A program made the translations under genes and the position numbers. From Pelagibius marinus (lineage in GTDB: Bacteria; Pseudomonadota; Alphaproteobacteria; Kiloniellales; Kiloniellaceae), in contig NZ_JACSDK010000010.1 in the NCBI RefSeq assembly GCF_014925385.1, forward strand, positions 1 to 64,000: a stretch of 64,000 bases of DNA. Reading direction: 5' to 3'. The notes under the pieces were generated by a model, which worked only from the letters and a program-made list of their open reading frames with translations, was not told where the DNA came from and did no database searches. Of the stretch, positions 482 to 40,532 are shown piece by piece. Numbering within the stretch: the first letter of the stretch is position 1; each line of letters starts with the position of its first letter.

Positions 482-2017
<1,536 letters not shown>

Positions 2018-24552: not shown

Positions 24553-24618
24553 GCGCTCTCTGATAAACTGCCTGCAATTTGGGCGGCGACCGGCTCTTGC
24601 TCAAAATTTAGACATTCG

Positions 24619-24646
24619 CGAACGGTCGTTTTAAGGCGAACGTTCG
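24619..24646. promoter_or_regulatory. Paired CGAACGNTCG elements, candidate enhancer site
   Basis: CGAACGGTCG (24619-24628) and the perfect palindrome CGAACGTTCG (24637-24646) are direct repeats 18 bp apart. They sit about 70-95 bp upstream of the -24 element. They do not match the usual NtrC consensus, so the activator could be another enhancer-binding protein. Confidence 0.45.
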
Positions 24647-24712
24647 TCTACGTATTTTCCGGCATCTCAGGATTCCCGCTGTTTTTCGGCGGCCGGGCGA
24701 CAGCGCGGCGTC

Positions 24713-24728
24713 TGGCACGGCCCTTGCT
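24713..24728 (+). promoter_or_regulatory. Sigma-54 (-24/-12) promoter of the guanidine operon
   Basis: TGGCACGGCCCTTGCT fits the RpoN consensus exactly. Transcription should begin about 10-12 bases past the -12 GC, at about 24738. That is the first base of the riboswitch P1 helix. Nitrogen control is therefore likely to be layered on guanidine sensing. Confidence 0.9.
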
Positions 24729-24737
24729 CTTATCCGC

Positions 24738-24857
24738 AGTGCAGGGCGTCTAGGGTTCCGGCTGCCACGTTGTGGCGGTGACTGGTCCGAGAGATGCACT
24801 CCGGGGCCGACAATCGTTCCGGACACACGGCGGGCCAAAATCCCGGGAGATCACTGC
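24738..24857 (+). ncRNA. Guanidine-I riboswitch (ykkC class, subtype 1)
   Basis: The ykkC aptamer landmarks appear in order. TCTAGGGTTCCG (24749-24760) forms the 5' conserved loop. CTGGTCCGAGAG (24782-24793) is the 3' partner. ACGGCGGGCCAAAATCCC with the terminal CCCGGGAGA (24827-24850) makes the P3 region. P1 is closed by AGTGCA / TGCACT (24738-24743 and 24795-24800), and a GCCAC / GTGGC hairpin caps P1. This aptamer class binds free guanidinium and turns genes on. It precedes an importer and a guanidine hydrolase-type enzyme. Confidence 0.95.
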
Positions 24858-24859
24858 AA

Positions 24860-24951
24860 GAGGTCTGAGGCCAGCTTCAGGAGTCCCTCTTCAGGTGTTT
24901 CTGGGTCCGGCCCAAGACCTCCGATCGATAAGAACGAGATCGAACAGGAGG
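24860..24951 (+). promoter_or_regulatory. Candidate riboswitch expression platform (Shine-Dalgarno sequestration)
   Basis: AGACCTCC (24915-24922) can pair with the Shine-Dalgarno AGGAGG (24946-24951), hiding it. It can instead pair with GAGGTCT (24860-24866), just 3' of the aptamer. These pairings exclude each other, which suggests a translational switch. No terminator with a U tract was found between aptamer and start codon. Confidence 0.55.
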
Positions 24952-24957
24952 TTTGGG

Positions 24958-26052
24958 ATGCTGCGTTACGTTTCCTCGAAGATTTTTGCGAAGGGGCTGC
25001 TTTGCGCCCTGGTGGCGATGCTGGCTCTGGTGTCGTTGCCCGGGCAGCCGGCGCTGGCGGCCAAGAAGGAGAGCTTCCGCGTTGCCTGGTCCATCTACGT
25101 GGGCTGGATGCCTTGGGCCTACGCGGCCGAGAAGGGCATCGTCGACAAGTGGGCCAAGAAGTACGGCATCGAGATCGAGGTCGTGCAGATCAACGACTAT
25201 ATCGAGTCCATCAACCAGTACACCGCCGGGGCCTTCGACGGCTGCGTCATGACCAACATGGACGCGCTGTCCATTCCGGCCGGCGGCGGGCTCGATTCCA
25301 CCGCTCTCATCCTCGGCGACTTCTCCAACGGCAACGACGGCCTGGTGGTGAAGGGCGACCTTGGCATCGCCGACCTGACGGGCAAGAACGTGAACCTGGT
25401 CGAGCTCTCGGTCTCGCACTACCTGCTGGCCCGGGCGCTGGATTCCGCCGGCATCGCCGAGCGCGATCTGACGGTGGTCAATACCTCCGACGCCGACATG
25501 GTCGCCGCCTTCAAGACCGCCGAGGTCGAGGCGGTGGTGACCTGGAACCCGCTGTTGAGCGAGATCGCCGCCGAGCCGGGCGCCAAGGTGCTCTACACCT
25601 CGGAAGACATCCCCGGCGAGATCATCGACATGATGGTGGTGAACACCGAGACCCTGGCCGACAACCCGGACTTCGGCAAGGCACTGGTCGGCGCCTGGTA
25701 CGAGACCATGTCGATCATGATGAAGGACGACGCCGAGGGTAAGGCGGCGCGCAGCTTCATGGGCGAGAAGTCGGGCACCGACCTGGCCGGCTACGACGCC
25801 CAACTCGCCACCACCAAGATGTTCTACGAGCCCGCCGAGGCGGTCGACTTCGCCAAGAGCGAGAAGCTGGCCGAGACCATGGACGTGGTGCGCAACTTCC
25901 TCTTCGACCACGGCATCCTGGGCGAGGGCGCACCGAGCCCCGACTACGTCGGCATGACCTTCCCGGGCGGCGGCACGCTGGGCGACAGCGGCAATACGAA
26001 GCTGCGCTTCGACGTCGACTACATGGGCATGGCGGCCGCGGGCGCGCTGTAA
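24958..26052 (+). CDS. ABC transporter substrate-binding protein, guanidine/urea-carboxylase-region type
   Basis: This is a 364-aa periplasmic receptor of the nitrate/sulfonate/taurine class. Its signal peptide is cleaved near ALA (residue 34). The mature start FRVAWSIYVGWMPWAYAAEKG is typical of receptors found beside urea-carboxylase and guanidine-degradation genes. It has a strong AGGAGG Shine-Dalgarno under the guanidine-I riboswitch. Guanidine is the inferred ligand, based on the riboswitch and on the downstream hydrolase. Confidence 0.85.
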   Translation: MLRYVSSKIFAKGLLCALVAMLALVSLPGQPALAAKKESFRVAWSIYVGWMPWAYAAEKGIVDKWAKKYGIEIEVVQINDYIESINQYTAGAFDGCVMTNMDALSIPAGGGLDSTALILGDFSNGNDGLVVKGDLGIADLTGKNVNLVELSVSHYLLARALDSAGIAERDLTVVNTSDADMVAAFKTAEVEAVVTWNPLLSEIAAEPGAKVLYTSEDIPGEIIDMMVVNTETLADNPDFGKALVGAWYETMSIMMKDDAEGKAARSFMGEKSGTDLAGYDAQLATTKMFYEPAEAVDFAKSEKLAETMDVVRNFLFDHGILGEGAPSPDYVGMTFPGGGTLGDSGNTKLRFDVDYMGMAAAGAL

Positions 26053-26076: not shown

Positions 26077-26898
26077 ATGGGTAGGTTGATCAATCGGCGG
26101 CCGGGACGGGCAGGGCAGGTCCTGCTCGGCGCTTTGCCCTTCATTCTCCTGGCCGCCGCCTACCTCATGGCCTCCGACGCGCGCCTGGCGGTGAACCCGA
26201 ACGACAAGCTGCTGCCCTCGGTGCAGAGCTTCGTCGACGCGATCAACCGCCTCGCCTTCCAGCCGGACCCGCGCAAGGGGACCTACATCCTATGGGACGA
26301 CACGCTCGCAAGCCTGCTGCGACTGGGCATCGGCCTCTCGGTGGCGACCGGCTTCGGCTTGGTCGCCGGGGTGGCAATCGGCCTGCTGCCGCTCGCGCGC
26401 TCGGCCTTCGCGCCGGTCGTGGCCGTGCTGTCCATGGTGCCACCGCTGGCGATCCTGCCGATCCTCTTCATCGTTTTCGGGCTGGGCGAGGTCGCCAAGG
26501 TGATGCTGATCGTCATCGGCGTGACGCCCTTCATGGTCCGCGACCTCTCGATGTCGGTCGCCACCCTGCCGCGCGAGCAACTGGTGAAGGCGCAAACGCT
26601 GGGCGCCTCCACCTGGCAGATCGTCACTCGCGTGGTCCTGCCGCAGACCCTGCCGCGTCTGGTCAGCGCCCTGCGCCTGTCGCTGGGCCCGGCCTGGCTG
26701 TTCCTCATCTCCAGCGAGGCAATCGCCGCGACCGAGGGGCTCGGCTACCGCATCTTCCTGGTGCGCCGCTACCTGGCGATGGACGTGATCCTGCCCTATG
26801 TCGCCTGGATTACGCTGCTGGCCTTCATGATCGACTGGGCGCTGCGCCACCTGTCGGACCGCGCCTTCGACTGGCAGCCGGGGGAGCGCGGGCTATGA
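26077..26898 (+). CDS. ABC transporter permease of the guanidine-type importer
   Basis: This 273-aa membrane protein has about six helices and the binding-protein-dependent permease (EAA) loop LVKAQTLGASTWQIVTRVVLPQ. It belongs to the SsuC/TauC-like family. It overlaps the ATPase gene by ATGA and follows the receptor by 24 bp. Confidence 0.88.
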   Translation: MGRLINRRPGRAGQVLLGALPFILLAAAYLMASDARLAVNPNDKLLPSVQSFVDAINRLAFQPDPRKGTYILWDDTLASLLRLGIGLSVATGFGLVAGVAIGLLPLARSAFAPVVAVLSMVPPLAILPILFIVFGLGEVAKVMLIVIGVTPFMVRDLSMSVATLPREQLVKAQTLGASTWQIVTRVVLPQTLPRLVSALRLSLGPAWLFLISSEAIAATEGLGYRIFLVRRYLAMDVILPYVAWITLLAFMIDWALRHLSDRAFDWQPGERGL

Positions 26899-27704
26899 GC
26901 CTCATCTCCGTTCGCAACCTGTCGGTCCGCTACGGCGACTTCACGGTGCTTGAGCGGGTGAACCTGGAGGTCGCGCAGCAGGAGTTCTGTTCCATTGTCG
27001 GCGCCAGCGGTTGCGGCAAGTCGACCTTCCTGCGCCTGCTGCTGAGCGAGGAGCAGCCCAGCGGCGGCGAGATCCGCATCGACGGCGCTCCCATCGCCAA
27101 GGAGCCGCAGGCCGATCGCGGCGTGGTGTTCCAGCGCTACTCCGTCTTTCCGCACCTGTCGGTAATCGAGAACGTGATCCTGCCGATGGAACTGGAGGCC
27201 TCCGCCTTCTGCGGCCGCTTCTTCGGCGCGCGGCGCCGTCGTGCCAAGGAAGAGGCGGCCCACCTGCTGGAGCGTGTCGGACTGTCGCACGTGCGCGACG
27301 CCTATCCCAAGACCCTGTCCGGCGGCATGCAGCAGCGCCTCGCCATCGCCCAGGCGCTCATCCCCAAGCCCAAGGTGCTGCTGCTCGACGAGCCCTTCGG
27401 CGCGCTGGACCCCGGCACCCGGCAGACCATGCACGAAATCATCCTTTCTCTCTGGGAGGAGGAGAAGATGACCATCTTCATGGTCACCCACGACCTGAAG
27501 GAAGGCTTCAAGCTGGGTACCCGGCTGCTGGTCTTTGACAAGCTGCGCTGGGACCCGCAAGCGCCCGAGGCCTACGGCGCCACCATCACCTACGACCTGC
27601 CGATCGACCGCCGCGACGTGCTGCCGCCGGAATTGGAAGCCAAGGCCGAGGCTTTGAACAAAGAACCCTCAAGGAACGAAGGACCCCTCAATGCTCTCCC
27701 GTGA
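26895..27704 (+). CDS. ABC transporter ATPase of the guanidine-type importer
   Basis: This 269-aa ATPase has Walker A GASGCGKST, signature LSGGMQQR and Walker B VLLLDEPFGALD. It has a C-terminal extension of about 55 residues after the core. The gene overlaps both neighbours, by 4 bp with the permease and 14 bp with the hydrolase, so tight co-translation is expected. Confidence 0.88.
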   Translation: MSLISVRNLSVRYGDFTVLERVNLEVAQQEFCSIVGASGCGKSTFLRLLLSEEQPSGGEIRIDGAPIAKEPQADRGVVFQRYSVFPHLSVIENVILPMELEASAFCGRFFGARRRRAKEEAAHLLERVGLSHVRDAYPKTLSGGMQQRLAIAQALIPKPKVLLLDEPFGALDPGTRQTMHEIILSLWEEEKMTIFMVTHDLKEGFKLGTRLLVFDKLRWDPQAPEAYGATITYDLPIDRRDVLPPELEAKAEALNKEPSRNEGPLNALP

Positions 27705-28923
27705 CATCAGCCGCCGCACCAGCCGCATCGCCGGTGGCGAGGCCGCCCCGCTGGAACGCCGCCGCCATCACCACCCGGACTTCGACAAGATGCAGCTGCA
27801 GGGCTGGCGTTCTGCGCTGAAGGAAGCGGATCTGCCGGAGGACGGCTGGCGCAAGGAGCGCCAGTGGGCCTTGCGCGTCGGCCTGGCCGCCGCCGACAGT
27901 ATCGAGGACCGCGGGATCTCCACTTTCGCCCGGGGCGAGCTGCCGCACTACGCCGGCATCAACACCTTCCTGAAGGCGCCCTATACCGAAGACGTGGCGG
28001 AGGTCGGGAACTACGACGCGGCGGTCATGGGCGTGCCCTTCGACGGCGGCACCACCTATCGTCCGGGCACGCGCTTCGGACCGCAGGGTATCCGCCGCAT
28101 CTCGGCGCTCTACACGCCTTACAACTACGATATGGGCGTCGACCTGCGCGAGCAGATGACGCTCTGCGATGTGGGTGACGTCTTCACCATCCCGGCCAAC
28201 ATCGAGAAGACCTTCGACCAGATCTCGCGGGCCGTGGGGCATGTCTTCTCCTCCGGTGCCCTGCCGATGATCATGGGCGGCGACCACTCCATCGGATTTG
28301 CGACCGTGCGCGGCATCGCTCAGTGCACCTCCAAGAAGATCGGCATCATTCACTTCGACCGCCATGCCGACATCCAGGAAAAGGACCTGGACGAGCGCAT
28401 GCACACCACGCCGTGGTTCCACGCCACCAACCTGGACAACGTGCCGGCCAAGAACCTGGTGCAGATCGGCATCGGCGGCTGGCAGGTCCCCCGCGAGGCG
28501 GTGGTCGAGGCGAGGAAGCGCGACACCACTATCATTTCCATGTCTGACGTAGAGCGCCTGGGCATCGACAAGGTGGCCGAGATCGCGCTGGAGACCGCCT
28601 GGGACGGCGTCGACGCGGTCTACCTCAGCTTCGACATCGATTCCGTCGACTGCGGCTTCGTGCCCGGCACCGGCTGGCCGGAGCCCGGCGGCTTCCTGCC
28701 GCGCGAGGCACTGAGCCTGGTCAGCAAGGTGGCCGCCGAGGGTATCTGCGGCATGGAGGTGGTGGAAGTCTCGCCACCCTACGACACTTCCGACATCACC
28801 TCGCTCTTCGCCACCCGCGTCATGGTCGACGTGCTGGGCACCCTGGTGGCGCACAACAAGCTGGGCGCACACAAGTCGATCATCGACAAGCCGGTGGACT
28901 TCACCGCGGGAGGCGCGGCATGA
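27691..28923 (+). CDS. gdmH: Guanidine hydrolase (agmatinase/arginase superfamily)
   Basis: This ureohydrolase-fold enzyme of 410 aa is best read as the nickel-dependent guanidine hydrolase, which splits guanidine to urea and ammonia. Metal ligands are visible in GGDHSIGF, HFDRHADIQ and SFDIDSVDCGFVPGTG. The first Asp-His pair has Arg where agmatinases have Ala. An N-terminal extension of about 110 residues and the HTTPWFHATN segment after the metal loop distinguish it from agmatinase (inference). The guanidine-I riboswitch, the importer next door and downstream urease genes support the role. The order importer-then-hydrolase parallels the Synechocystis sll1082-sll1077 region, recalled from memory. 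Confidence 0.82.
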   Translation: MLSRDISRRTSRIAGGEAAPLERRRHHHPDFDKMQLQGWRSALKEADLPEDGWRKERQWALRVGLAAADSIEDRGISTFARGELPHYAGINTFLKAPYTEDVAEVGNYDAAVMGVPFDGGTTYRPGTRFGPQGIRRISALYTPYNYDMGVDLREQMTLCDVGDVFTIPANIEKTFDQISRAVGHVFSSGALPMIMGGDHSIGFATVRGIAQCTSKKIGIIHFDRHADIQEKDLDERMHTTPWFHATNLDNVPAKNLVQIGIGGWQVPREAVVEARKRDTTIISMSDVERLGIDKVAEIALETAWDGVDAVYLSFDIDSVDCGFVPGTGWPEPGGFLPREALSLVSKVAAEGICGMEVVEVSPPYDTSDITSLFATRVMVDVLGTLVAHNKLGAHKSIIDKPVDFTAGGAA

Positions 28924-29390
28924 GCGCCCGCCACTCCCATGATCACGGGCATGGCCATGCGCAGGGGCACAACCATCCGCCCGAGCACCAGCACCTGCAC
29001 TCGCACCCCCACGCCGACCCCCACGCGGCGGCGCCGGGGCAGACGCGCGACGACGACAGCCTGCTGGCCGACGCGCTGATGGAAGGTTTCGAGGCCGCCG
29101 AGGATAAGCCGAGTTTCCTGCGCATGGCGCGCATCCCCTCGCATCTGCATGGGTCCGAGGGGGAGGTGCTGCGCCTGGTCGATGTGGAGCTGCGCTACGC
29201 CTACCAGGTCGGCACCGCCTCGCCGGCCTTCAACGCTGAGGAGCTCGTCTACCTGCCGTTCCCGGCCAACATGGTCCGAGAGCGTGCCGACATGATCTTT
29301 GTCTACGTCTCGCTGCGCAGCCGGCGCGACGTAGGCCTCAAGGAAATGGTCGAGATTTTGAGGGAAAGGGAAGCAGGGGGAGAACACTAG
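28920..29390 (+). CDS. Histidine-rich protein in the guanidine operon, function unknown
   Basis: This 156-aa protein starts with a metal-binding tail that has 13 histidines in the first 35 residues, with HDHGHGHAQGHNH-type spacing. A folded domain of about 100 residues follows (ARIPSHLHGSEGEVLRLVDVELRY...). I do not recognise it. It has no CxxC pair or P-loop, so it is not HypA or HypB. It overlaps the hydrolase gene by ATGA. A role in storing or delivering nickel to the hydrolase is inferred from the His tail and location. Confidence 0.75.
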   Translation: MSARHSHDHGHGHAQGHNHPPEHQHLHSHPHADPHAAAPGQTRDDDSLLADALMEGFEAAEDKPSFLRMARIPSHLHGSEGEVLRLVDVELRYAYQVGTASPAFNAEELVYLPFPANMVRERADMIFVYVSLRSRRDVGLKEMVEILREREAGGEH

Positions 29391-29485: not shown

Positions 29486-29741
29486 CTGACCAGCAGCCCG
29501 CTCCTCGGCAATACGCGGCGTCGGCAAGTGCGTCAACGCGCTTGATGCCGCAGTCGGTCCAGGCGACTGGGCTTTATTTAGAGCCGCTTGGCTTGATCGA
29601 GAACGCGCAAGTAATACTAAGCTTGCGCGGGGCTTGCCTATTTCCAGAAAGCAAGTGAGAACAAGAACAATTTATGACTCTGTGGCATTTTTATTTGAAT
29701 AAGACTTGACAGTTTGCGGTCAATTTCTTCACACTTTTGCG

Positions 29742-29764
29742 GTGCAACATCAACGTCTAGCGGA
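29742..29764 (+). repeat. 23-bp repeat, copy B, in the urtA leader
   Basis: The match to copy A at 29463 has two mismatches. It covers the urtA leader just before its ribosome-binding region. Confidence 0.6.
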
Positions 29765-29773
29765 GATTAGACA

Positions 29774-31057
29774 ATGAAATCCGTTCTCAGGGGGGCGATG
29801 AGCGCCGCGGCTTTTGCTGCTGCTCTCGCCGGCGTCTCGGCGGCTCAGGCGGCCGAGACCATCAAGGTAGGGGTGCTCCACTCGCTGTCGGGCACCATGG
29901 CGATTTCCGAGACCACGCTGAAGGACACCGTCCTGATGATGGTCGACGATCTCAACAAGAAGGGCGGCCTGCTGGGCAAGCAGGTTGAAGCCGTGGTCGT
30001 GGACCCGGCCTCCGACTGGCCGCTGTTCGCCGAAAAGGCGCGTGAGCTGATCGAGAAGGAAGAGGTCGCGGTGGTCTTCGGCTGCTGGACCTCGGTTTCG
30101 CGCAAGTCCGTGCTGCCGGTCTTCGAGGAGCTGAACGGCCTGCTCTTCTACCCGGTGCAGTACGAGGGCGAGGAAAGCTCGCGCAATGTCTTCTACACCG
30201 GCGCGGCGCCGAATCAGCAGGCGATCCCGGCGGTCGAGTATCTGATGAGCGAAGACGGCGGCGGCGCCGAGCGTTTCGTGCTGCTGGGCACCGACTACGT
30301 CTATCCGCGCACCACCAACAAGATCCTGCGTGCTTTCCTGAACGCCAAGGGTATCTCCGATGACGACATCATGGAGAACTACACGCCCTTCGGTCACTCC
30401 GACTGGCAGACCATCGTGGCCGAGGTGAAGGAATTCGCTTCCCAGGGTAAGAAGACCGCGGTGGTCTCCACCATCAACGGCGATGCCAACGTTCCCTTCT
30501 ACAAGGAACTGGGCAACCAGGGCATCAAGGCCGAGGACATCCCGGTGGTGGCTTTCTCCGTGGGTGAGGAAGAGCTTGCGGGCCTCGACACCGGCCCGCT
30601 GGTCGGCCACCTGGCCGCCTGGAACTACTTCATGAGCGTCGAGGCCGACGTGAATGACGAGTTCATCACGGCCTGGCATGCCTTCATCGGCGACGAGAAG
30701 CGCGTGACCAACGATCCCATGGAGGCCACCTACATCGGCTTCAAGATGTGGACCCAGGCGGTTGAACAGGCCGGCACCACCGAGGTCGACGCGGTGCGCC
30801 AGGCGATGTACGGCCAGACCGTGCCGAACCTGACCGGTGGTACGGCGGTGATGAACACCAACCATCACCTCTCCAAGCCGGTGCTGATCGGTGAGATCCA
30901 GGACGACGGCATGATCGAGACCGTGTGGTCGACCGACAAGGAAGTCGTGGGCGACGCCTGGAGCGACTTCATCCCGGAAAGCGCCAAGCTGACCGCCGAC
31001 TGGACCTTTCCCTGGGTCTGCGGCAACTGCGAAGAACCGAAGTACGTGAAGCAGTAA
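29774..31057 (+). CDS. urtA: Urea ABC transporter substrate-binding protein UrtA
   Basis: This is a periplasmic urea receptor of 427 aa. The signal peptide is cleaved after AAQA (near residue 26). The family segments IKVGVLHSLSGTMAISE, VVFGCWTSVSRKSVLPVFE and LLFYPVQYEGEESS are diagnostic of UrtA. It heads the five-gene urt operon, which is followed directly by urease genes. The protein delivers urea at low concentration to UrtBC. Confidence 0.97.
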   Translation: MKSVLRGAMSAAAFAAALAGVSAAQAAETIKVGVLHSLSGTMAISETTLKDTVLMMVDDLNKKGGLLGKQVEAVVVDPASDWPLFAEKARELIEKEEVAVVFGCWTSVSRKSVLPVFEELNGLLFYPVQYEGEESSRNVFYTGAAPNQQAIPAVEYLMSEDGGGAERFVLLGTDYVYPRTTNKILRAFLNAKGISDDDIMENYTPFGHSDWQTIVAEVKEFASQGKKTAVVSTINGDANVPFYKELGNQGIKAEDIPVVAFSVGEEELAGLDTGPLVGHLAAWNYFMSVEADVNDEFITAWHAFIGDEKRVTNDPMEATYIGFKMWTQAVEQAGTTEVDAVRQAMYGQTVPNLTGGTAVMNTNHHLSKPVLIGEIQDDGMIETVWSTDKEVVGDAWSDFIPESAKLTADWTFPWVCGNCEEPKYVKQ

Positions 31058-31135
31058 CCCCGGTGGCGGGGGCGGGCTCTGGCGGCCCGCCCCCGATGCC
31101 TCTTTGACCAAGCCCGTTACCGAATAGAGAATCCG

Positions 31136-32779
31136 ATGTTTCCCACCCGCATGGTCCGTGCACTGCGTTGCCTGGTTCTCGCCCTGGGCCTCCTGCTGCC
31201 GACGGCGGCCCTGGCCGATCTGGAGGGCGACCTCGACGGCCTGCGGGAGAAATCCTACAACGCCAAGGGTGAAGCGGTGGAGCGCATTGTCGCCGGGGGC
31301 GACGAGCGCGCCGTGCCGATCCTGGAGGCTTTCCTGGAGGGTAACCTCTTTATCGCCGACCAAGACGACCGCATCGTGATCGGCGAGGATTCCGATGGTG
31401 GCTACCGAATTATCGACGCGCTGACCGGCGAGGCCTTGGGGGAAGTCGGCAAGCGCGACGTCTCCAAGATCAAGATCAACAACAAGCTGCGCCAACTGGT
31501 GAAGGGCAGCCTGGGCGCCCTGACGCTGGGCAGCAAGGATCCGGCAGCGCGTATCCGCGCGGCCGACGCCGTCTTCCGCAGCACCCAGGTCGAAATGATA
31601 CCGGCTCTGGAAGCGGCCATCGCCAAGGAAACGGACGCCACGGTGAAGGCGCGCCTGCGTCGCGCCCTGGCCGCCACCCAGTTGGCCGAATCCGAGGATA
31701 CGGAGACCCGCGTCGCCGCCCTGCAGGTGCTGGGCGAATTCACCGACCCGGAAGTGCGCACCCTGGCCGCCGGTGTCCTGGTGACCGACGGCGACGGCAA
31801 CCCCACGGAGGCCGATGCCGCCGTGCGCGCCGCCGCCGAGGCGGCGCTGAAGTCGATCGAAGAAGGGTTGGCGGTCGCCAGCCTCATCGCCAACATCTTC
31901 CAGGGAATCAGCCTGGGCTCGGTGCTGCTGCTGGCCGCCATCGGGCTCGCCATCACCTTCGGCGTCATGGGGGTCATCAACATGGCCCACGGCGAGATGG
32001 TGATGCTGGGCGCCTACACCACCTTCGTGGTCCAGGAGTTGTTCCGTGCTTCCTTCCCCGGGGCTTTCGACTATTCGCTGCTGGTGGCGGTGCCCATCGC
32101 CTTCGTGGTGACCGGCGTCATCGGCATCGGGATCGAGCGCGGTATCATCCGCTGGCTCTACGGTCGCCCGCTGGAAACCCTGCTGGCGACCTGGGGACTC
32201 AGCCTCATTCTGCAGCAGGCGGTGCGTACGATCTTCGGTCCGACCAACCGCGAGGTCGGCAACCCGAGTTGGATGAGTGGCGCCTGGGAGGTCACCGGCG
32301 GCCTGGTCCTCACCTACAACCGCATCTGGATCATTCTCTTCGCGCTGCTGGTCTTCGCCGCGCTGATGGCGCTGATCCGGCGCTCGAGCTACGGCCTGCA
32401 GATGCGCGCGGTGACTCAGAACCGCCCCATGGCGTCGTCGATGGGCATCCGCACCGGCTGGGTCGACGCCATGACCTTCGGCCTGGGCTCGGGCATCGCC
32501 GGCATGGCCGGGGTGGCGCTCAGCCAGATCGACAACGTCAGTCCCAACCTGGGCCAGGGCTACATCATCGACAGCTTCATGGTGGTGGTCTTCGGCGGGG
32601 TGGGGAACCTCTGGGGCACGCTGGTCGGCGCCTTCTCGCTGGGACTGGTGAACAAGTTCCTGGAACCCTATGCCGGGGCGGTGCTGGCCAAGATCTTCAT
32701 CCTGGTCGCCATCATCCTTTTCATCCAGAAGCGCCCGCGCGGCCTCTTCGCCCTGCGCGGCCGGGCCCTGGAGTCCTGA
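31136..32779 (+). CDS. urtB: Urea ABC transporter permease UrtB
   Basis: This is the LivH-type membrane subunit, 547 aa. A signal peptide and a periplasmic extension of about 240 residues, with HEAT-like alpha repeats, precede the permease core. That architecture is usual for proteobacterial UrtB. The core begins at NIFQGISLGSVLLLAAIGLA and includes INMAHGEMVMLGAYT and GGVGNLWGTLVG. Confidence 0.96.
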   Translation: MFPTRMVRALRCLVLALGLLLPTAALADLEGDLDGLREKSYNAKGEAVERIVAGGDERAVPILEAFLEGNLFIADQDDRIVIGEDSDGGYRIIDALTGEALGEVGKRDVSKIKINNKLRQLVKGSLGALTLGSKDPAARIRAADAVFRSTQVEMIPALEAAIAKETDATVKARLRRALAATQLAESEDTETRVAALQVLGEFTDPEVRTLAAGVLVTDGDGNPTEADAAVRAAAEAALKSIEEGLAVASLIANIFQGISLGSVLLLAAIGLAITFGVMGVINMAHGEMVMLGAYTTFVVQELFRASFPGAFDYSLLVAVPIAFVVTGVIGIGIERGIIRWLYGRPLETLLATWGLSLILQQAVRTIFGPTNREVGNPSWMSGAWEVTGGLVLTYNRIWIILFALLVFAALMALIRRSSYGLQMRAVTQNRPMASSMGIRTGWVDAMTFGLGSGIAGMAGVALSQIDNVSPNLGQGYIIDSFMVVVFGGVGNLWGTLVGAFSLGLVNKFLEPYAGAVLAKIFILVAIILFIQKRPRGLFALRGRALES

Positions 32780-32782
32780 CGT

Positions 32783-33934
32783 ATGATCTTGTCGAATGAC
32801 CGCAACCACCTGCTCTCGCCGCTGGGCGCCAAGATCACCCTGGCGGTGCTGCTGCTGGTCGCGGTGCTGGTGCCCCTGCTGAACCTCTCGGTGCCGCCGG
32901 GTTCGGCCTTCCACGTGCCGACCTACGTGGTCAGCTTGCTCGGCAAGTACCTCTGCTTTGCCATGCTGGCGCTCAGTGTCGACCTCATCTGGGGCTTCTG
33001 CGGCATTCTCTCGCTCGGCCACGGCGCCTTCTTCGCGCTGGGCGGCTACGCCATGGGCATGTACCTCATGCGCCAGATCGGCGACCGCGGCGTCTACGGC
33101 AACCCGATTCTGCCGGACTTCATGGTCTTCCTGAACTGGAAGGAACTGCCCTGGTACTGGTACGGCTTCGACGCCTTTCCCTTCGCCCTGCTGATGGTGC
33201 TGCTGGTGCCGGGTCTCCTGGCGCTGGTCTTCGGCTGGTTCGCCTTCCGCTCGCGGGTGACGGGCGTCTACCTCTCGATCATCACTCAGGCCATGACCTT
33301 CGCGTTGCTGCTGGCCTTCTTCCGCAACGACATGGGCTTCGGCGGCAACAACGGCCTGACCGACTTCAAGGACCTGCTGGGCTTCGACCTGCAGGACGAC
33401 GGCACGCGCGCCGCGCTCTTCGTCGCCACGGCGGTGATGCTGGTCCTCGCCTACCTGCTGTGCCGCTGGATCATCGGCTCCAAGGTCGGGCGCGTGCTGA
33501 TCGCCATCCGTGACGCCGAGAGCCGCACCCGCTTCCTCGGCTACCGGGTCGAGTACTACAAGCTCTTCGTCTTCACGGTCTCGGCCATGCTGGCGGGCAT
33601 CGCCGGGGCGCTCTATGTCCCGCAGGTCGGCATCATCAACCCCAGCGAGTTCTCCCCGGCCAACTCCATCGAAATCGTCATCTGGGTGGCGGTCGGCGGG
33701 CGCGGCTACCTGCACGGCGCCATCCTGGGCGCCATCCTGGTGAACTACGCCAAGACCTATCTGACCGGTGCGGCGCCGGACATCTGGCTGTTCTTCCTGG
33801 GCGGCCTCTTCATCGCCGTCACGGTGCTGCTGCCCAAGGGTATCGTCGGCTCGCTGGATCAGCTGCGCGGGCGGCTCCCGGGGGGCTTCAAGCCGAAAGC
33901 TCAAGCGAAGGTGCAGGAGATGCCCGGTGAGTGA
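32783..33934 (+). CDS. urtC: Urea ABC transporter permease UrtC
   Basis: This is the LivM-type membrane subunit, 383 aa. It has the UrtC hallmark ILSLGHGAFFALGGYAMGMYLM near residue 75 and the EAA-like loop in the C-terminal half. It starts 3 bp after urtB and its last codons overlap the preferred GTG start of urtD. Confidence 0.96.
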   Translation: MILSNDRNHLLSPLGAKITLAVLLLVAVLVPLLNLSVPPGSAFHVPTYVVSLLGKYLCFAMLALSVDLIWGFCGILSLGHGAFFALGGYAMGMYLMRQIGDRGVYGNPILPDFMVFLNWKELPWYWYGFDAFPFALLMVLLVPGLLALVFGWFAFRSRVTGVYLSIITQAMTFALLLAFFRNDMGFGGNNGLTDFKDLLGFDLQDDGTRAALFVATAVMLVLAYLLCRWIIGSKVGRVLIAIRDAESRTRFLGYRVEYYKLFVFTVSAMLAGIAGALYVPQVGIINPSEFSPANSIEIVIWVAVGGRGYLHGAILGAILVNYAKTYLTGAAPDIWLFFLGGLFIAVTVLLPKGIVGSLDQLRGRLPGGFKPKAQAKVQEMPGE

Positions 33935-34745
33935 AGCCCCGGTGCGAGAAGTTATGATCCAGTCCGAGGCCGAACCGCTGGAGCCGGCGGCCGCGCCCCA
34001 TCCCGCGGCAGACACCATCCTCTACATGGACGGCGTCACCGTCAGCTTCGACGGCTTCAAGGCGCTGAACAACCTCAGCCTCTATGTGAAGGAGGGGGAG
34101 CTGCGGGCCATCATCGGGCCCAACGGCGCGGGCAAGACCACCATGATGGACGTCATCACCGGCAAGACGCGCCCCGACAGCGGCGAGGTCTTCTTCGACG
34201 GCGGCATCGACCTGACCAAGCTGGACGAGGCGGCCATCGCCAACCTGGGCATCGGGCGCAAGTTCCAGAAGCCGACGGTCTTCGAGAGCCAGAGCGTCTT
34301 CAACAACCTGGAGCTGGCGCAGAAGGGCAGGCGGGACGTCTTCACCGGCCTCTTCGCCCGGCTGAGCGGCGAGCAGCGCGACCACATCGGCCGGGTGCTG
34401 GAGCGCATCGCGCTGACGGATCACGTCGGCCGGCTGGCCGGAAACCTGTCCCACGGCCAGAAGCAGTGGCTGGAGATCGGCATGCTGCTGATGCAGGACC
34501 CGGAACTGCTGCTGGTCGACGAGCCGGCCGCCGGCATGACCGACGCCGAGACCGCCAAGACGGCGGAGATGCTGCAGGAGATCGCCCGCGACCACTCCGT
34601 CGTGGTCGTCGAGCACGACATGGAATTCATCAAGGCGCTGAACTGCCACGTCACGGTGCTGCACGAGGGCTCGGTCCTGGCCGAAGGCTCGTTGGAGAGC
34701 GTGCAGAACAACCAGCACGTCATCGAAGTTTATCTCGGGCGCTAG
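33927..34745 (+). CDS. urtD: Urea ABC transporter ATPase UrtD
   Basis: This is a LivG-type ATPase of 272 aa. Walker A is GPNGAGKTT, the signature variant LSHGQKQW and Walker B LLLVDEPAAGMT. A GTG at 33927 with AGGAG seven bases upstream is preferred; ATG at 33954 is an alternative. The core is preceded by a short acidic, Pro/Ala-rich leader. Confidence 0.94.
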   Translation: MSEAPVREVMIQSEAEPLEPAAAPHPAADTILYMDGVTVSFDGFKALNNLSLYVKEGELRAIIGPNGAGKTTMMDVITGKTRPDSGEVFFDGGIDLTKLDEAAIANLGIGRKFQKPTVFESQSVFNNLELAQKGRRDVFTGLFARLSGEQRDHIGRVLERIALTDHVGRLAGNLSHGQKQWLEIGMLLMQDPELLLVDEPAAGMTDAETAKTAEMLQEIARDHSVVVVEHDMEFIKALNCHVTVLHEGSVLAEGSLESVQNNQHVIEVYLGR

Positions 34746-34763
34746 GTAGGGGGCGCTGAACCT

Positions 34764-35459
34764 ATGCTGCAGGTGCAGAACATCGATCTTTTCTACGGCG
34801 CCAGCCAGGCCCTGCGCGGCGTCTCGCTGAACGCGGCCAAGGGCGAGGTGACCTGCGTCATGGGCCGCAACGGCGTCGGCAAGACCAGCCTGCTGCGCGC
34901 GATCTGCGGCCAGCAGCCGGTGAAGAGCGGCGCGATCGTCTGGGAGGAGGAGACGCTGGGCAGCCTGGCGCCCCATCAGCGCGCGCGCCGGGGCATAGCT
35001 TTCGTGCCCCAGGGCCGCGAGATCTTTCCGCTGCTGACGGTGGAGGAGAACCTGCGCACCGGCTATGCCGCCATCCCGCGCGACCGGCGCCATGTGGAGG
35101 CGGAGATCTACGAGCTCTTCCCGGTGCTGAAGGACATGCTGAAGCGCCGCGGCGGCGACCTCTCCGGCGGCCAGCAGCAGCAGCTCGCCATCGCCCGGGC
35201 GCTGGTCATGCGCCCGCGCCTGCTGGTGCTGGACGAGCCCACCGAAGGCATCCAGCCCTCGATCATCAAGGACATCGAGCGGGTGATCCGGCTGCTCGCC
35301 CGGCGCGGCGACATGGCCATCCTGCTGGTGGAGCAGTATTTCGAGTTCGCCCGCGACCTGGCGGACAGCTATGCTGTGATGGACCGCGGCGAGATCGTGC
35401 TCGCGGGCCGCGGCGAGGAAATGGTTGAAGCGGATGTCCGTCGCTACATCGCTGTCTGA
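34764..35459 (+). CDS. urtE: Urea ABC transporter ATPase UrtE
   Basis: This is a LivF-type ATPase of 231 aa. Walker A is GRNGVGKTS, the signature LSGGQQQQ and Walker B LLVLDEPTEGIQPS, where TEGIQPS is typical of UrtE. Its 3' end overlaps the start of ureD, tying uptake to urease synthesis. Confidence 0.96.
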   Translation: MLQVQNIDLFYGASQALRGVSLNAAKGEVTCVMGRNGVGKTSLLRAICGQQPVKSGAIVWEEETLGSLAPHQRARRGIAFVPQGREIFPLLTVEENLRTGYAAIPRDRRHVEAEIYELFPVLKDMLKRRGGDLSGGQQQQLAIARALVMRPRLLVLDEPTEGIQPSIIKDIERVIRLLARRGDMAILLVEQYFEFARDLADSYAVMDRGEIVLAGRGEEMVEADVRRYIAV

Positions 35460-36324
35460 AGCGCCGCTGCCTGCCTCCGGGGCGGAAGTGATCGCCCTGC
35501 GCCGCACCGCCGTCGCGGGGGAGGCGGCCCTGGGCGTGCGCGCGGACAACGGTATCACCCGGCTGGTCGAGTTGCACCAGCGCGACCCCTTGAGCCTGCG
35601 ACTGCCGCAGCCGGGGCGCGGCGACATCTTCGAGGCGAGCCTTATCACGACGTCCGGCGGCGTGGTCGGCGGCGACAGCCTGCGGATCGAGATCACCGCC
35701 GGCGCGGGCAGCGCCCTGCGCGTCTACCCCCAGGCGGCGGAGAAGATCTACCGCTCGTTGGGCGCGGACAGCCGTATCACCGTGGGGCTGAGCGCGTCGG
35801 CGGGGGCCTGGCTGGAATGGCTGCCCCAGGAAACCATCCTCTTCGACGGCGCCCGCCTGCGCCGTGACACCAACATCGAACTCGCCCCCGGCGCCCGCGT
35901 GCTGGCCGGTGAGTTCCTGGTCTTCGGGCGCCGCGCCTCGGGCGAACGTTTGAGCCGCGGACTCATTCACGACGGCTGGCGCCTCCGCCGCGGCGGCAAG
36001 CTGGTCTGGGCCGATGCGCTGCATGCGGATGGCGACCTGGCCGCGCCGCTGGCCTCGCCCGCCTGCCTGGGCGGCGTCACCGCCTTCGCCAGCCTCATCT
36101 ATGCCGCCGAGGACGCGGCGGCGCAGCTGGAGGCGCTGCGCGAGCTGCTGCCGGAAGAGCCGGCGGGGGCGCAGCACGCCCTGACGGCGGTCAACGGCCT
36201 CGTTGTCGGGCGCTTCCTGGGCGAGGCCCTGGCGGTGCGGCGCAGCTACGGCGCCTTCTGGGCGGCGGCGCGGGCGCGGCTGGCGGGGCTGCCGGCGGCG
36301 CTGCCGCGGCTCTGGCATGTGTAG
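35434..36324 (+). CDS. ureD: Urease accessory protein UreD
   Basis: This is an assembly factor that forms the UreDFG chaperone complex for nickel insertion into urease, 296 aa. The family segments are LITTSGGVVGGD, PQAAEKIYRS and EWLPQETILFDGA. The ATG at 35434 was chosen, overlapping urtE by 26 bp. It begins the ureDABCEFG order typical of alphaproteobacteria. Confidence 0.95.
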   Translation: MSVATSLSEAPLPASGAEVIALRRTAVAGEAALGVRADNGITRLVELHQRDPLSLRLPQPGRGDIFEASLITTSGGVVGGDSLRIEITAGAGSALRVYPQAAEKIYRSLGADSRITVGLSASAGAWLEWLPQETILFDGARLRRDTNIELAPGARVLAGEFLVFGRRASGERLSRGLIHDGWRLRRGGKLVWADALHADGDLAAPLASPACLGGVTAFASLIYAAEDAAAQLEALRELLPEEPAGAQHALTAVNGLVVGRFLGEALAVRRSYGAFWAAARARLAGLPAALPRLWHV

Positions 36325-36358
36325 AGTGAAAAGACGAGTGTGTAAGGGAGGTTAAGGC

Positions 36359-36661
36359 GTGAACCTGACACCGCGCGAGAAGGACAAGCTGCTGGTGGCC
36401 ATGGCCGCGATGGTGGCGCGCAACCGCCTGGAACGGGGCTGCAAATTGAACTATCCGGAGGCCATTGCCCTCATCTCCGACTACGTGGTCGAGGGCGCGC
36501 GCGACGGCCGCTCGGTGGCCGACCTCATGCGCGACGGCGGCACGGTGCTGGCGCGCGACCAGGTCATGGAGGGCGTCGCCGAGATGATCCACGAGATCCA
36601 GGTCGAGGCGACCTTCCCCGACGGCACCAAGCTGGTGACCGTGCACCAGCCCATTCGCTAG
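36359..36661 (+). CDS. ureA: Urease gamma subunit UreA
   Basis: This is the 100-aa gamma subunit of the urease heterotrimer. It shows [20 protein letters not shown] at the N-terminus and [14 protein letters not shown]. Translation starts at GTG, preceded by AAGGGAGG. It is followed 11 bp later by ureB. Confidence 0.97.
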
Positions 36662-36672
36662 GAGGCGAGACA

Positions 36673-36984
36673 ATGATTCCCGGAGAGATCATGGTCGCCG
36701 CCGGCGACATCGAGCTGAACGCGGGGCGCGAGACCGTGACCCTGCTGGTGGAGAACACCGGCGACCGCCCGGTGCAGGTCGGCTCCCACTATCATTTCTT
36801 TGAGACCAACGGGGCGCTCAGCTTCGATCGCGACAAGGCGCGCGGCTGTCGCCTGGACATTCCCGCCGGCACGGCGGTGCGCTTCGAGCCGGGCCAGAGC
36901 CGCGAGGTGACGCTGATCCCCTATGCCGGCGGCCGCGAAGTCTACGGCTTCAACGCCGAGATCAACGGCAAGCTGGAGGGCTAG
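36673..36984 (+). CDS. ureB: Urease beta subunit UreB
   Basis: This is the 103-aa beta subunit. It shows [20 protein letters not shown], the conserved [11 protein letters not shown] and [26 protein letters not shown] Shine-Dalgarno precedes it, and ureC follows after 4 bp. Confidence 0.97.
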
Positions 36985-36988
36985 GGAC

Positions 36989-38698
<1,710 letters not shown>

Positions 38699-38711
38699 GG
38701 AGGCCTTGGGG

Positions 38712-39200
38712 ATGCTGCGCGCCACCGAAGTCATACCGGCGGGGAGCTACGAGCCCTGGTCGGCGCGCGATTGCGTGGTGCTGGACTTCGATGCCCGCCA
38801 CCGCCGGCGTATCGTCATGCAGGGTGAGGCGGGCCTCGACTTCCTGCTCGACCTGCCCGAAGCTGTGGCGCTGGCCGACGGCGACGGGCTGCTGCTGGAA
38901 GATGGCGGCTTCGTTACGGTGAAGGCGGCGCCCGAGCGCCTCATCGAAGTGCGCGCCGGCGACGACCTGCCCCTGGTCCGCATCGCCTGGCACCTGGGCA
39001 ACCGGCACCTGCCGACGCAGATCCTGAACGACGCCCTGCGCATCCGCGAGGACCACGTCATCCTGGACATGCTGCAGAAGATGGGCGCGCGCACGCAGAT
39101 CATCGAAGCGCCCTTCGATCCGGAGGGCGGCGCCTACGGCCAGGGCCGCACGCACTCACATGACCACGGTCATGGTCATGGGGGGCACGGCCATGACTGA
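38712..39200 (+). CDS. ureE: Urease nickel metallochaperone UreE
   Basis: This is a 162-aa nickel carrier with the UreE N- and C-terminal domains ([14 protein letters not shown] and [12 protein letters not shown]). A His-rich tail, [16 protein letters not shown], is at the C-terminus. The ATG at 38712 has AGGAGG upstream; a TTG at 38706 is less likely. It overlaps ureF by 8 bp. Confidence 0.95.
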
Positions 39201-39875
39201 GACGCTGGACCACGCCGGGCTCTACCGCCTGATGACCTGGCTGTCGCCGGGCTACCCGGTCGGCGCCTTCAGCTACTCCCACGGCCTGGAGTACGCGGTG
39301 GAGGAGGGGACCGTCACCGACGCCGCCGCGCTGGAGATCTGGCTGGCGGACCTGCTGCGCTACGGCTCCGGGCGCAACGACGCCATTCTCTTCCACTACG
39401 CTCACAGGCTGGCGGAACGCCCGGCGGCACTGGCGGAGGTCGCCGCCCTGGGCGCCGCCTTCACGGCCTCCGCCGAACGGCATCTGGAGACCACGGCGCA
39501 GGGCCGCGCCTTCACCGAGGCCACCCTGGACGCCTGGCCCTGCGCGGCGCTGGAGCGCTTCCTGGAGGCCTGGGACGGCCCGCTGGCCTACCCGGTGGTG
39601 GTGGCGGTGGCGGCGGCCGGGCATGGCCTTGGCCTGGAGCCCAGCCTGCACGCCTATCTGCACGCTTTCACCGGCAACCTGGTCTCCGCCGGGGTGCGCC
39701 TCATTCCGCTCGGCCAGCGTGCCGGCCAGCAGGCGATCGCCGCCCTGGAGCCGGCCGTGGCCGAGACCGCCGCCATGGCGCTGACCACGCCGCTCGCCGA
39801 CCTGGGGGGCGCGGGGCTGCTGGCCGATCTCGCCGCGATGAAACACGAAACCCAGTACACGAGGTTGTTCCGCTC

Positions 39876-39879
<4 letters not shown>
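39193..39879 (+). CDS. ureF: Urease accessory protein UreF
   Basis: This is an all-alpha assembly factor of 228 aa that bridges UreD and UreG. The conserved start [24 protein letters not shown] is clear. The start at 39193 lies inside the end of ureE, and its stop overlaps the ureG start as ATGA. Confidence 0.95.

Positions 39880-40532
<653 letters not shown>

What the first reader, a model, noticed from the sequence alone, without database searches (positions are those of the whole stretch)
24713..24957. Sigma-54 promoter placed directly at the start of a guanidine-I riboswitch
A consensus -24/-12 site would start transcription at about 24738, the first base of P1 of a ykkC-class aptamer. 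Nitrogen status and free guanidine would then both be needed for expression. The aptamer landmarks are all present. The combination of RpoN with this riboswitch is an unusual dual-input design.
Basis: partly seen in the sequence, partly recalled or inferred. Interest (0 to 1): 0.85.

Follow-up and report, generated by a model that had tools for sequence, protein, structure and literature searches.

The report
Nitrogen-starvation promoter fused to guanidine riboswitch
In this bacterium the genes for eating guanidine sit behind a nitrogen-starvation type promoter predicted to start the message right where a guanidine-sensing RNA begins, and the same pairing turns out to be common in related bacteria, so these cells probably make the genes only when they are short of nitrogen and guanidine is present.

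Summary
Rfam finds a Guanidine-I riboswitch at 24739-24851 (77.3 bits, cut-off 63). A perfect sigma-54 site, TGGCAC-N5-TTGC, lies at 24713-24727 and predicts a start near 24739. It is not chance: 38 of 61 alphaproteobacterial and 39 of 45 other proteobacterial Guanidine-I loci have a site of at least 9/10 in the 110 bases upstream, against 0.7% of background intervals and 0 of 60 TPP or glycine riboswitches. In alphas it sits at the aptamer's edge, elsewhere 35-85 bases upstream.

Upstream of the window's promoter lie the two best matches in 64 kb to an NtrC-type motif learned without this locus or its near relatives. The same motif precedes P-II genes in these genomes. The operon encodes a guanidine-type importer, a GdmH-like hydrolase, urea transport and urease. 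A published start in Magnetospirillum fits the promoter, though in ammonium-fed cells; a Burkholderia ntrC mutant loses expression of like-named genes.

So this is probably an AND gate: nitrogen shortage plus guanidine. No paper in the search rows I saw links sigma-54 to a guanidine riboswitch. EamA-transporter loci lack a strong site (0 of 7).

The parts
24569..24585 (.). NtrC-type enhancer site 2, TGCCTGCAATTTGGGCG, centre -162
   Evidence: second-best match in the 64 kb window to a motif trained on other loci, also when near relatives are left out of the training; matches at about the same place in L002-L008
24598..24614 (.). NtrC-type enhancer site 1, TGCTCAAAATTTAGACA, centre -133
   Evidence: best match in the 64 kb window to the same motif; shuffle p 0.001; 29 bp from site 2
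24636..24647 (.). palindrome GCGAACGTTCGT, centre -97, role unknown (further enhancer or other regulator site)
   Evidence: aligned palindrome at -97/-99 in four genus members and at -97 in L300
24713..24727 (+). sigma-54 -24/-12 promoter TGGCACGGCCCTTGC
   Evidence: 10 of 10 key positions; a site of at least 9/10 in 38 of 61 alpha loci
24739..24739 (+). predicted transcription start
   Evidence: 12 bases past the -12 C; the published start in Magnetospirillum lies 14 bases past its -12 C
24739..24851 (+). Guanidine-I (ykkC) riboswitch aptamer
   Evidence: RF00442, 77.3 bits, E 5.2e-12
24860..24921 (+). putative ON helix: GAGGTCT (24860-24866) with AGACCTC (24915-24921), incompatible with the OFF helix
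   Evidence: constrained folds: 3.4-4.1 kcal/mol less stable than the OFF helix in the 3' part up to 24965/24975, 0.3 more stable in longer fragments, 7.2-7.7 less stable in the whole leader without ligand
24915..24954 (+). putative OFF helix: AGACCTCC (24915-24922) with GGAGGTTT (24947-24954), hides the Shine-Dalgarno
   Evidence: part of the minimum-energy folds; not seen as a common structure in relatives
24946..24952 (+). Shine-Dalgarno AGGAGGT
   Evidence: read from sequence
24958..26052 (+). guanidine-type ABC importer, substrate-binding protein (family named 'putative urea ABC transporter')
   Evidence: TIGR03427, 545 bits, cut-off 334
26077..26898 (+). ABC importer permease
   Evidence: PF00528
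26895..27704 (+). ABC importer ATPase (start codon chosen by eye)
   Evidence: PF00005
27691..28923 (+). GdmH-like guanidine hydrolase (arginase family)
   Evidence: best solved relatives 7esr/7oi1 (E 2e-165) and 9fek (7e-159), next 2e-51; their identity as guanidine hydrolases is recalled, the list calls them agmatinase 2
28920..29390 (+). histidine-rich small protein, possibly a nickel chaperone (guess)
   Evidence: sequence only; no family hit in NCBIfam or Pfam
29774..35459 (+). urea ABC transporter genes (UrtA by family, the rest read from sequence)
   Evidence: TIGR03407 for UrtA; ORFs
35425..40532 (+). urease structural and accessory genes (read from sequence, no family scan)
   Evidence: ORFs

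Best explanation
The region is a two-signal (AND) control element for guanidine assimilation. Under nitrogen shortage phosphorylated NtrC binds two sites about 30 bp apart at -133 and -162 and activates sigma-54 RNA polymerase at 24713-24727. Transcription starts at about 24739, so the Guanidine-I aptamer is the first structure on the RNA. If guanidine is bound, the leader adopts a fold that leaves the Shine-Dalgarno sequence free and the operon (importer, GdmH-like hydrolase, perhaps on into urea uptake and urease) is expressed; if not, AGACCTCC pairs with the Shine-Dalgarno. Shown here by computation: aptamer, promoter, their conservation at a narrow range of distances in alphas, the NtrC-type motif and its presence before P-II genes, rpoN in the genome, operon content. 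Inferred: use of the promoter in this organism, NtrC as the activator, translational rather than transcriptional read-out, co-transcription into urt and ure.
For: Aptamer. Sigma-54 sites of at least 9/10 in 38 of 61 alpha and 39 of 45 non-alpha loci against 12/1600 and 9/1203 background intervals and 0 of 60 control riboswitches. TGC-N11-GCA upstream in 64 of 142 sigma-54 plus aptamer loci against 15.9 (sd 3.6, maximum 25 in 100 shuffles), other spacings 8-19. Window sites rank 1 and 2 of 64 kb, also with near relatives left out of the training. Same motif before 18 of 22 P-II genes, 0 of 22 downstream, 0 of 60 control riboswitches, and with a sigma-54 site at P-II locus L303 of this genome. 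rpoN present. Five of 18 genomes checked lack rpoN and none of their five Guanidine-I loci has the promoter. In the same-genus genome G005, without an aptamer hit, the identical promoter and a like palindrome lie before urtA. Mapped start in M. gryphiswaldense 14 bases past the -12 C. In a B. cenocepacia ntrC mutant genes with the same names fall sharply; two Caballeronia operons with this gene order carry the aptamer and a sigma-54-like site, 9/10 and 8/10.
Against: The Magnetospirillum start was seen in oxic cultures with ammonium as the nitrogen source and not in the anoxic nitrate cultures, so in that species the promoter is not silent in ammonium. Each window NtrC-type site misses one of the six TGC/GCA positions. 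The ntrC gene was not looked for in this genome. The motif score is at least 11 in 27 of 40 alpha loci with a sigma-54 site and 6 of 23 without, but in only 3 of 45 non-alpha loci, and there TGC-N11-GCA is found in 12 of 39 against 2-8 at other spacings. So NtrC control outside the alphas rests on little sequence evidence. Sixteen of 54 alpha loci outside the EamA context lack a site of at least 9/10, nine of them in genomes with a strong rpoN hit (G304, G283, G267, G215, G432, G096, G174, G569, G573). The leader switch is weak: the full leader is not unusually stable against shuffles (z -1.26), ligand energy was not modelled, the ON helix is 7.2-7.7 kcal/mol less stable than the OFF helix in the whole leader, and relatives do not share one structure.
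Confidence: 0.8

Rival explanations
1. Sigma-54 is right but the activator is not NtrC: the palindrome at -97 (GCGAACGTTCGT) binds a dedicated enhancer-binding protein, and the TGC-N11-GCA sites are secondary.
For: The palindrome is kept at -97/-99 in four genus members and at -97 in G005 before urtA. It lies in the usual enhancer range (recalled).
Against: The TGC-N11-GCA motif is found in many more loci, as a pair at about the same places in order-level relatives, and before P-II genes; the palindrome was not found in the 600 bases before the 22 P-II genes examined.
Confidence: 0.12
2. The promoter is used, but mainly as a basal or growth-phase promoter; guanidine alone sets expression and nitrogen status matters little.
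For: The one mapped start that I found for this arrangement comes from ammonium-fed Magnetospirillum.
Against: The ntrC mutant of B. cenocepacia had no reads for two genes and log2 -6.0 for a third of a like-named operon; sigma-54 promoters need an activator (established knowledge); TSS sequencing can detect weak starts (inference).
Confidence: 0.1
3. Read-out is by transcription termination, intrinsic or Rho-dependent, not by Shine-Dalgarno sequestration.
For: Guanidine-I is described as regulating transcription (PMC12186494, passages); the R. johnstonii 3841 leader has a hairpin followed by T's after its aptamer, by eye.
Against: No terminator-like site in the window's leader after the aptamer by a consensus scan; an anti-Shine-Dalgarno helix is in the minimum-energy folds.
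Confidence: 0.33
4. The sigma-54 match is a chance match in GC-rich DNA next to a riboswitch that uses another promoter.
For: Matches of at least 8/10 occur in 76 of 1600 background intervals of the alpha loci.
Against: 10/10 match, narrow spacing, conserved where flanks have diverged, paired enhancer-type sites, absence in the five rpoN-less genomes.
Confidence: 0.02

Closest known systems
Guanidine-I (ykkC, RF00442) riboswitch controlling guanidine uptake and degradation
   Same: Aptamer family, downstream importer and GdmH-like hydrolase.
   Different: The review that I saw in passages (PMC12186494) has no occurrence of sigma or NtrC in its main text; here the switch lies behind a sigma-54 promoter with NtrC-type sites, predicted to start at its first base.
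NtrC/sigma-54 nitrogen regulon, e.g. the 'urea carboxylase' operon of Burkholderia cenocepacia H111 (PMC5491218, passages)
   Same: Genes with the same names (importer, UAAP-type aminomethyltransferase, carboxylase) strongly down in an ntrC mutant under nitrogen limitation; the paper says 95% of the top 150 genes are also sigma-54 regulated.
   Different: Reported as urea utilisation, with 0 occurrences of guanidine or riboswitch in the main text; it is the carboxylase pathway, not GdmH. I did not inspect the H111 sequence itself.
Predicted sigma-54 regulon, COG3665 (PMC12316311, passages)
   Different: No occurrence of guanidin- in the main text and the one riboswitch occurrence is in a reference; riboswitch not connected.
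gifB of Synechocystis: NtcA plus glutamine riboswitch (PMC6316151, passages)
   Same: A global nitrogen regulator and a riboswitch for a nitrogen compound act on one gene.
   Different: NtcA represses and the product accumulates in nitrogen excess; different regulator and ligand, no sigma-54 in the passages seen.

Membership tests
Guanidine-I riboswitch | Covariance model score over the curated cut-off | tested here: met
   77.3 against 63 bits, full model
Guanidine-I riboswitch | Upstream of guanidine transport or degradation genes | tested here: met
   TIGR03427 importer and GdmH-like hydrolase downstream
Guanidine-I riboswitch | Binds guanidine | not testable with these tools
   needs in-line probing
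Guanidine-I riboswitch | Ligand-dependent expression platform | tested here: inconclusive
   two exclusive helices in the window, no common structure in relatives, no terminator
Sigma-54 promoter | TGGCAC-N5-TTGC with GG/GC at -24/-12 | tested here: met
   10 of 10
Sigma-54 promoter | Conserved at a narrow distance in relatives | tested here: met
   38 of 61 alpha loci have a strong site, all 38 with the -12 base 6-15 bases before the aptamer model
Sigma-54 promoter | rpoN in the genome | tested here: met
   PF04552, E 1.5e-69
Sigma-54 promoter | Start site mapped and rpoN dependence | not testable with these tools
   only a published start in a relative
NtrC regulon | Upstream TGC-N11-GCA type sites | tested here: met
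   two sites, ranks 1 and 2 in 64 kb by the motif, each with one deviation in the six TGC/GCA positions
NtrC regulon | Same motif at known NtrC-type targets in these genomes | tested here: met
   18 of 22 P-II genes examined, of 30 places listed
NtrC regulon | ntrC gene in this genome; binding and activation | not tested

The most novel reading that the evidence does not exclude
Across Pseudomonadota, Guanidine-I riboswitches that serve guanidine as a nutrient are as a rule built into sigma-54 promoters under nitrogen control, while those in front of EamA-type transporters are not, so the promoter type tells whether a cell treats guanidine as food or as a burden. In Alphaproteobacteria promoter and aptamer are fused at a nearly fixed distance into one cassette that starts the RNA at the aptamer's first bases.
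Probability: 0.6. Interest if true: 0.72.

Novelty: new variant of a known kind. Interest (0 to 1): 0.62.

Why it matters
The physiological meaning of guanidine for bacteria, nutrient or stressor, is described as an open matter in the review seen in passages (PMC12186494). If the switch is gated by nitrogen starvation, the cell itself classifies guanidine as a nitrogen source. The promoter then becomes a sequence mark that may sort assimilation switches from others genome by genome. It may also explain why like-named genes appeared as a 'urea' operon in an NtrC regulon, and gives a simple natural AND gate to test.

Tried and rejected
Early reading that only alphas have the promoter: with an upstream interval of 45 bases non-alpha loci looked nearly empty; widening to 110 bases gave 39 of 45, so that reading was dropped. 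L010 and L011 were left out of the final count because the model hit is misplaced by about 120 bases (long insertion in the aptamer); both do have the promoter. One place (G287, contig start) had no upstream DNA. L040 is identical to L008, so 38 of 61 alpha loci is 37 of 60 distinct. A closing stem UGCAG/CUGCA around the aptamer was considered: nearly invariant in the eight near relatives aligned, so no covariation test was made. The NtrC score first tried with TGCAC half-sites gave 41 against 11.75 expected. A first statement that the two leader folds differ by 0.6 kcal/mol was wrong, since that figure compared something else; one search gives the direct comparison. The motif had near relatives in its training set; one search repeats it without them with the same two top sites. 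At the laxer cut-off of 8/10 one EamA locus (L265) has a site, at an odd distance, and the contrast is 1 of 7 against 39 of 54 in alphas (Fisher 0.005).

Literature: 10 of 10 searches used. No row shown names a link between a guanidine riboswitch and sigma-54 or NtrC, but searches listed only part of what they found (20 of 1,818, 30 of 74, 15 of 84, 25 of 471, 6 of 34), most rows were seen only as title and start of abstract, and subscription papers are mostly not held. Papers PMC3616915, PMC4842269, PMC12508155 and PMC12421884 were seen in passages and gave no such link.

Full report
Observation. A covariance scan of the window finds Guanidine-I at 24739-24851 (+), whole model, 77.3 bits against a cut-off of 63, the only one in the 5.44 Mb assembly. 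Just upstream, 24713-24727 reads TGGCACGGCCCTTGC, 10 of 10 key positions of a sigma-54 site; one other 10/10 site exists in 64 kb. The model's first six positions are unpaired, so P1 proper begins about 24745. A consensus scan finds no sigma-70-type promoter between 24560 and 24980.

Is it chance? Eleven of 13 aptamer loci in near and order-level relatives keep TGGCAC-N5-TTGC 22-23 bases before CTAGGG while flanks differ. In an even sample of 386 genomes of the class, 35 places carry the aptamer. One lacks upstream DNA; of 34, 25 have a site of at least 8/10 and 24 of at least 9/10 within 31 start positions, against 3 and 2 of 782 background intervals, 1 and 0 of 30 TPP and 0 of 30 glycine riboswitches. 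A phylum sample of 397 genomes added 63 further places. In the 110 bases upstream, 38 of 61 alpha loci (37 of 60 without one duplicate; L010 and L011 left out because of misplaced hits) and 39 of 45 non-alpha loci have a site of at least 9/10, against 12 of 1600 and 9 of 1203 background intervals and 0 of 60 control riboswitches. Where such a site exists, its -12 base lies 6-15 bases before the aptamer model in alphas and 35-85 before it elsewhere: two separate geometries.

Which activator? In 142 non-redundant sigma-54 plus aptamer loci, TGC-N11-GCA occurs upstream in 64, against 15.9 (sd 3.6, maximum 25) in 100 shuffles; other spacings from 5 to 17 give 8-19. Of 77 sites 60 lie between -70 and -140. 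That spacing is that of NtrC sites (TGCACC-N5-GGTGCA; recalled). A motif from 61 sites without the window locus has the consensus TGCCCAAAATTTGGGCA. In the window its two best matches in 64 kb are 24598-24614 (-133) and 24569-24585 (-162), 29 bp apart, as in L002-L005 and L008 (-124 to -134 and -154 to -164); L006 and L007 have weaker matches there. Retrained on 56 sites from 134 loci without near relatives, the same two sites rank first and second. Each misses one of the six TGC/GCA positions. The motif was then looked for before P-II genes, classical NtrC targets (recalled): at least 11 bits in 18 of 22 (22 of 30 listed places were examined), 0 of 22 downstream, 0 of 60 control riboswitches. 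One P-II locus of this genome (L303) has a 9/10 sigma-54 site with the motif centred 84 bases before it. Another (L313) has two motif sites 29 bp apart, one ending in GACA like the window's, but no sigma-54 site of 8/10; a third (L323) has neither. Against a general NtrC claim: the motif reaches 11 in only 3 of 45 non-alpha loci and TGC-N11-GCA in 12 of 39 against 2-8 at other spacings. I did not search for ntrC itself.

Natural experiments. Among 18 genomes checked, the window's own and 17 chosen because a locus lacks a clear promoter, five have no rpoN hit, all of one family. Their five Guanidine-I loci lack the promoter, and two of the three importer loci keep an NtrC-type score over 11. 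The window's genome has rpoN. Twelve of the 17 others have rpoN as well, so lack of the site is not explained by rpoN alone. In G573 the importer aptamer has the promoter (9/10), while the EamA aptamer and a UAAP aptamer (7/10) do not. Over all loci 0 of 7 EamA contexts have a site of at least 9/10, against 77 of 99 others (Fisher 6e-5; loci are not independent). Three of the seven EamA proteins were confirmed by Pfam, the rest joined by similarity; that they export guanidine is an assumption. In G005, same genus, 91% complete and without an aptamer hit, the identical promoter and a like palindrome lie directly before urtA, followed by TGCAGGGCG as at the aptamer's start.

Operon. 24958-26052 is TIGR03427 (545 bits, cut-off 334), then permease and ATPase. 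27691-28923 is an arginase-family protein whose best solved relatives are 7esr/7oi1 and 9fek, E 2e-165 and 7e-159, against 2e-51 for the next; the list calls them agmatinase 2, and I recall them as the guanidine hydrolases of Synechocystis and Nitrospira. Urea transport and urease follow, by UrtA's family and by reading the ORFs. The set would turn guanidine into urea and ammonia and then urea into ammonia.

Published data. M. gryphiswaldense Cappable-seq (PMC9549626, passages) lists Guanidine-I at 119,571-119,680 (-) with a start at 119,678. Genome G460 shows the same hits displaced by 12,777 (Guanidine-I) and 12,776 (TPP) bases, so I take it to be that species. Its locus has TGGCACGGGCTTTGC, an NtrC-type site at -97, and the published start falls 14 bases past the -12 C, within a base or two. 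RpoN has 0 occurrences in the paper's main text. Against strict nitrogen control: that start was seen in oxic cultures fed ammonium and not in anoxic nitrate cultures. In B. cenocepacia H111 an ntrC mutant under nitrogen limitation has no reads for a 'urea carboxylase-related' importer protein and aminomethyltransferase and log2 -6.0 for the carboxylase (PMC5491218, passages); the paper calls it urea use and has 0 occurrences of guanidine or riboswitch. Two Caballeronia plasmids with this gene order carry Guanidine-I behind a sigma-54-like site of 9/10 and 8/10. The H111 sequence itself was not read. A sigma-54 regulon prediction lists 102 COG3665 genes, 59% 'urea carboxylase' (PMC12316311, passages).

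Read-out. The leader holds two exclusive helices sharing 24915-24921: with 24860-24866 (ON) or with 24947-24954 (OFF, Shine-Dalgarno hidden). In constrained folds OFF is better by 3.4-4.1 kcal/mol in the 3' part up to 24965 or 24975, the two are within 0.3 in longer fragments, and OFF is better by 7.2-7.7 in the whole leader without ligand. In the longer 3' fragments the ON fold still pairs part of the Shine-Dalgarno with other bases. Relatives keep the letters GACCTC but not one fold, and the whole leader is not clearly more stable than shuffles (z -1.26). An OFF state without guanidine fits, but translational control remains my best guess, not a result; the R. johnstonii 3841 leader seems to have a terminator (by eye).

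Verdict. The parts are real and the two-input idea is well supported in alphas, but the design is common among proteobacterial guanidine-assimilation operons rather than an oddity. What appears new, within the rows shown by ten searches of the held library, is the link between the riboswitch and sigma-54/NtrC and its apparent sorting by function.

Noticed in passing
L300 1505-1690 (G005) compared with window 24636-24750 and 29740-29790: A same-genus genome without a Guanidine-I hit has the sigma-54 promoter and palindrome directly before urtA with a remnant TGCAGGGCG, as if the aptamer and guanidine genes were lost (or not yet gained) between them; by eye the remnant can pair with a 12-base inverted copy about 32 bases downstream.
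   Followed up: partly
window 482-2017 and 2146-2160: What reads, by eye, as a sigma-54 activator gene (AAA+) is followed by a perfect sigma-54 site directly upstream of TRAP-like transporter genes: a likely activator-target pair of its own. No family scan was run.
   Followed up: no
L025, L028, L033, L194 (upstream of the aptamer): Four alpha loci share TGGCAC/T-GCTTCTTGA: the -24 element is intact but the -12 GC reads GA at the same place, with NtrC-type scores of 10.1-12.2. Possibly a variant -12 element.
   Followed up: no
L020, L026: Guanidine-I behind a sigma-54 promoter in front of a TonB-dependent receptor (L026 by Pfam, L020 by similarity), not an ABC importer: perhaps outer-membrane uptake of a guanidine compound.
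   Followed up: partly
L010 1382-1595, L011: Aptamer with, by eye, an insertion of roughly 115 bases in the P2 arm; the Rfam model scores about 41 bits and places the start about 120 bases too far downstream.
   Followed up: partly
L273 (G848), L287 (G691): Genomes without an rpoN hit keep an NtrC-type site (12.7 and 13.2) before the guanidine importer but no sigma-54 promoter, as expected if NtrC works with another sigma factor there.
   Followed up: partly
L040, L008, L122: The same Pelagibius-type locus, identical over 600 bases, appears in genomes filed under other groups, including a Phaeomarinobacter MAG: likely a contaminating contig.
   Followed up: partly
window 37142-37429 (-): 5_ureB_sRNA model match (120.7 bits) antisense to the ureC-like frame; such a match may simply reflect coding conservation.
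   Followed up: no
L333 8590-8637, L334 8607-8653: In both Caballeronia operons a Guanidine-II riboswitch lies before the carboxylase gene, inside an operon headed by Guanidine-I.
   Followed up: no
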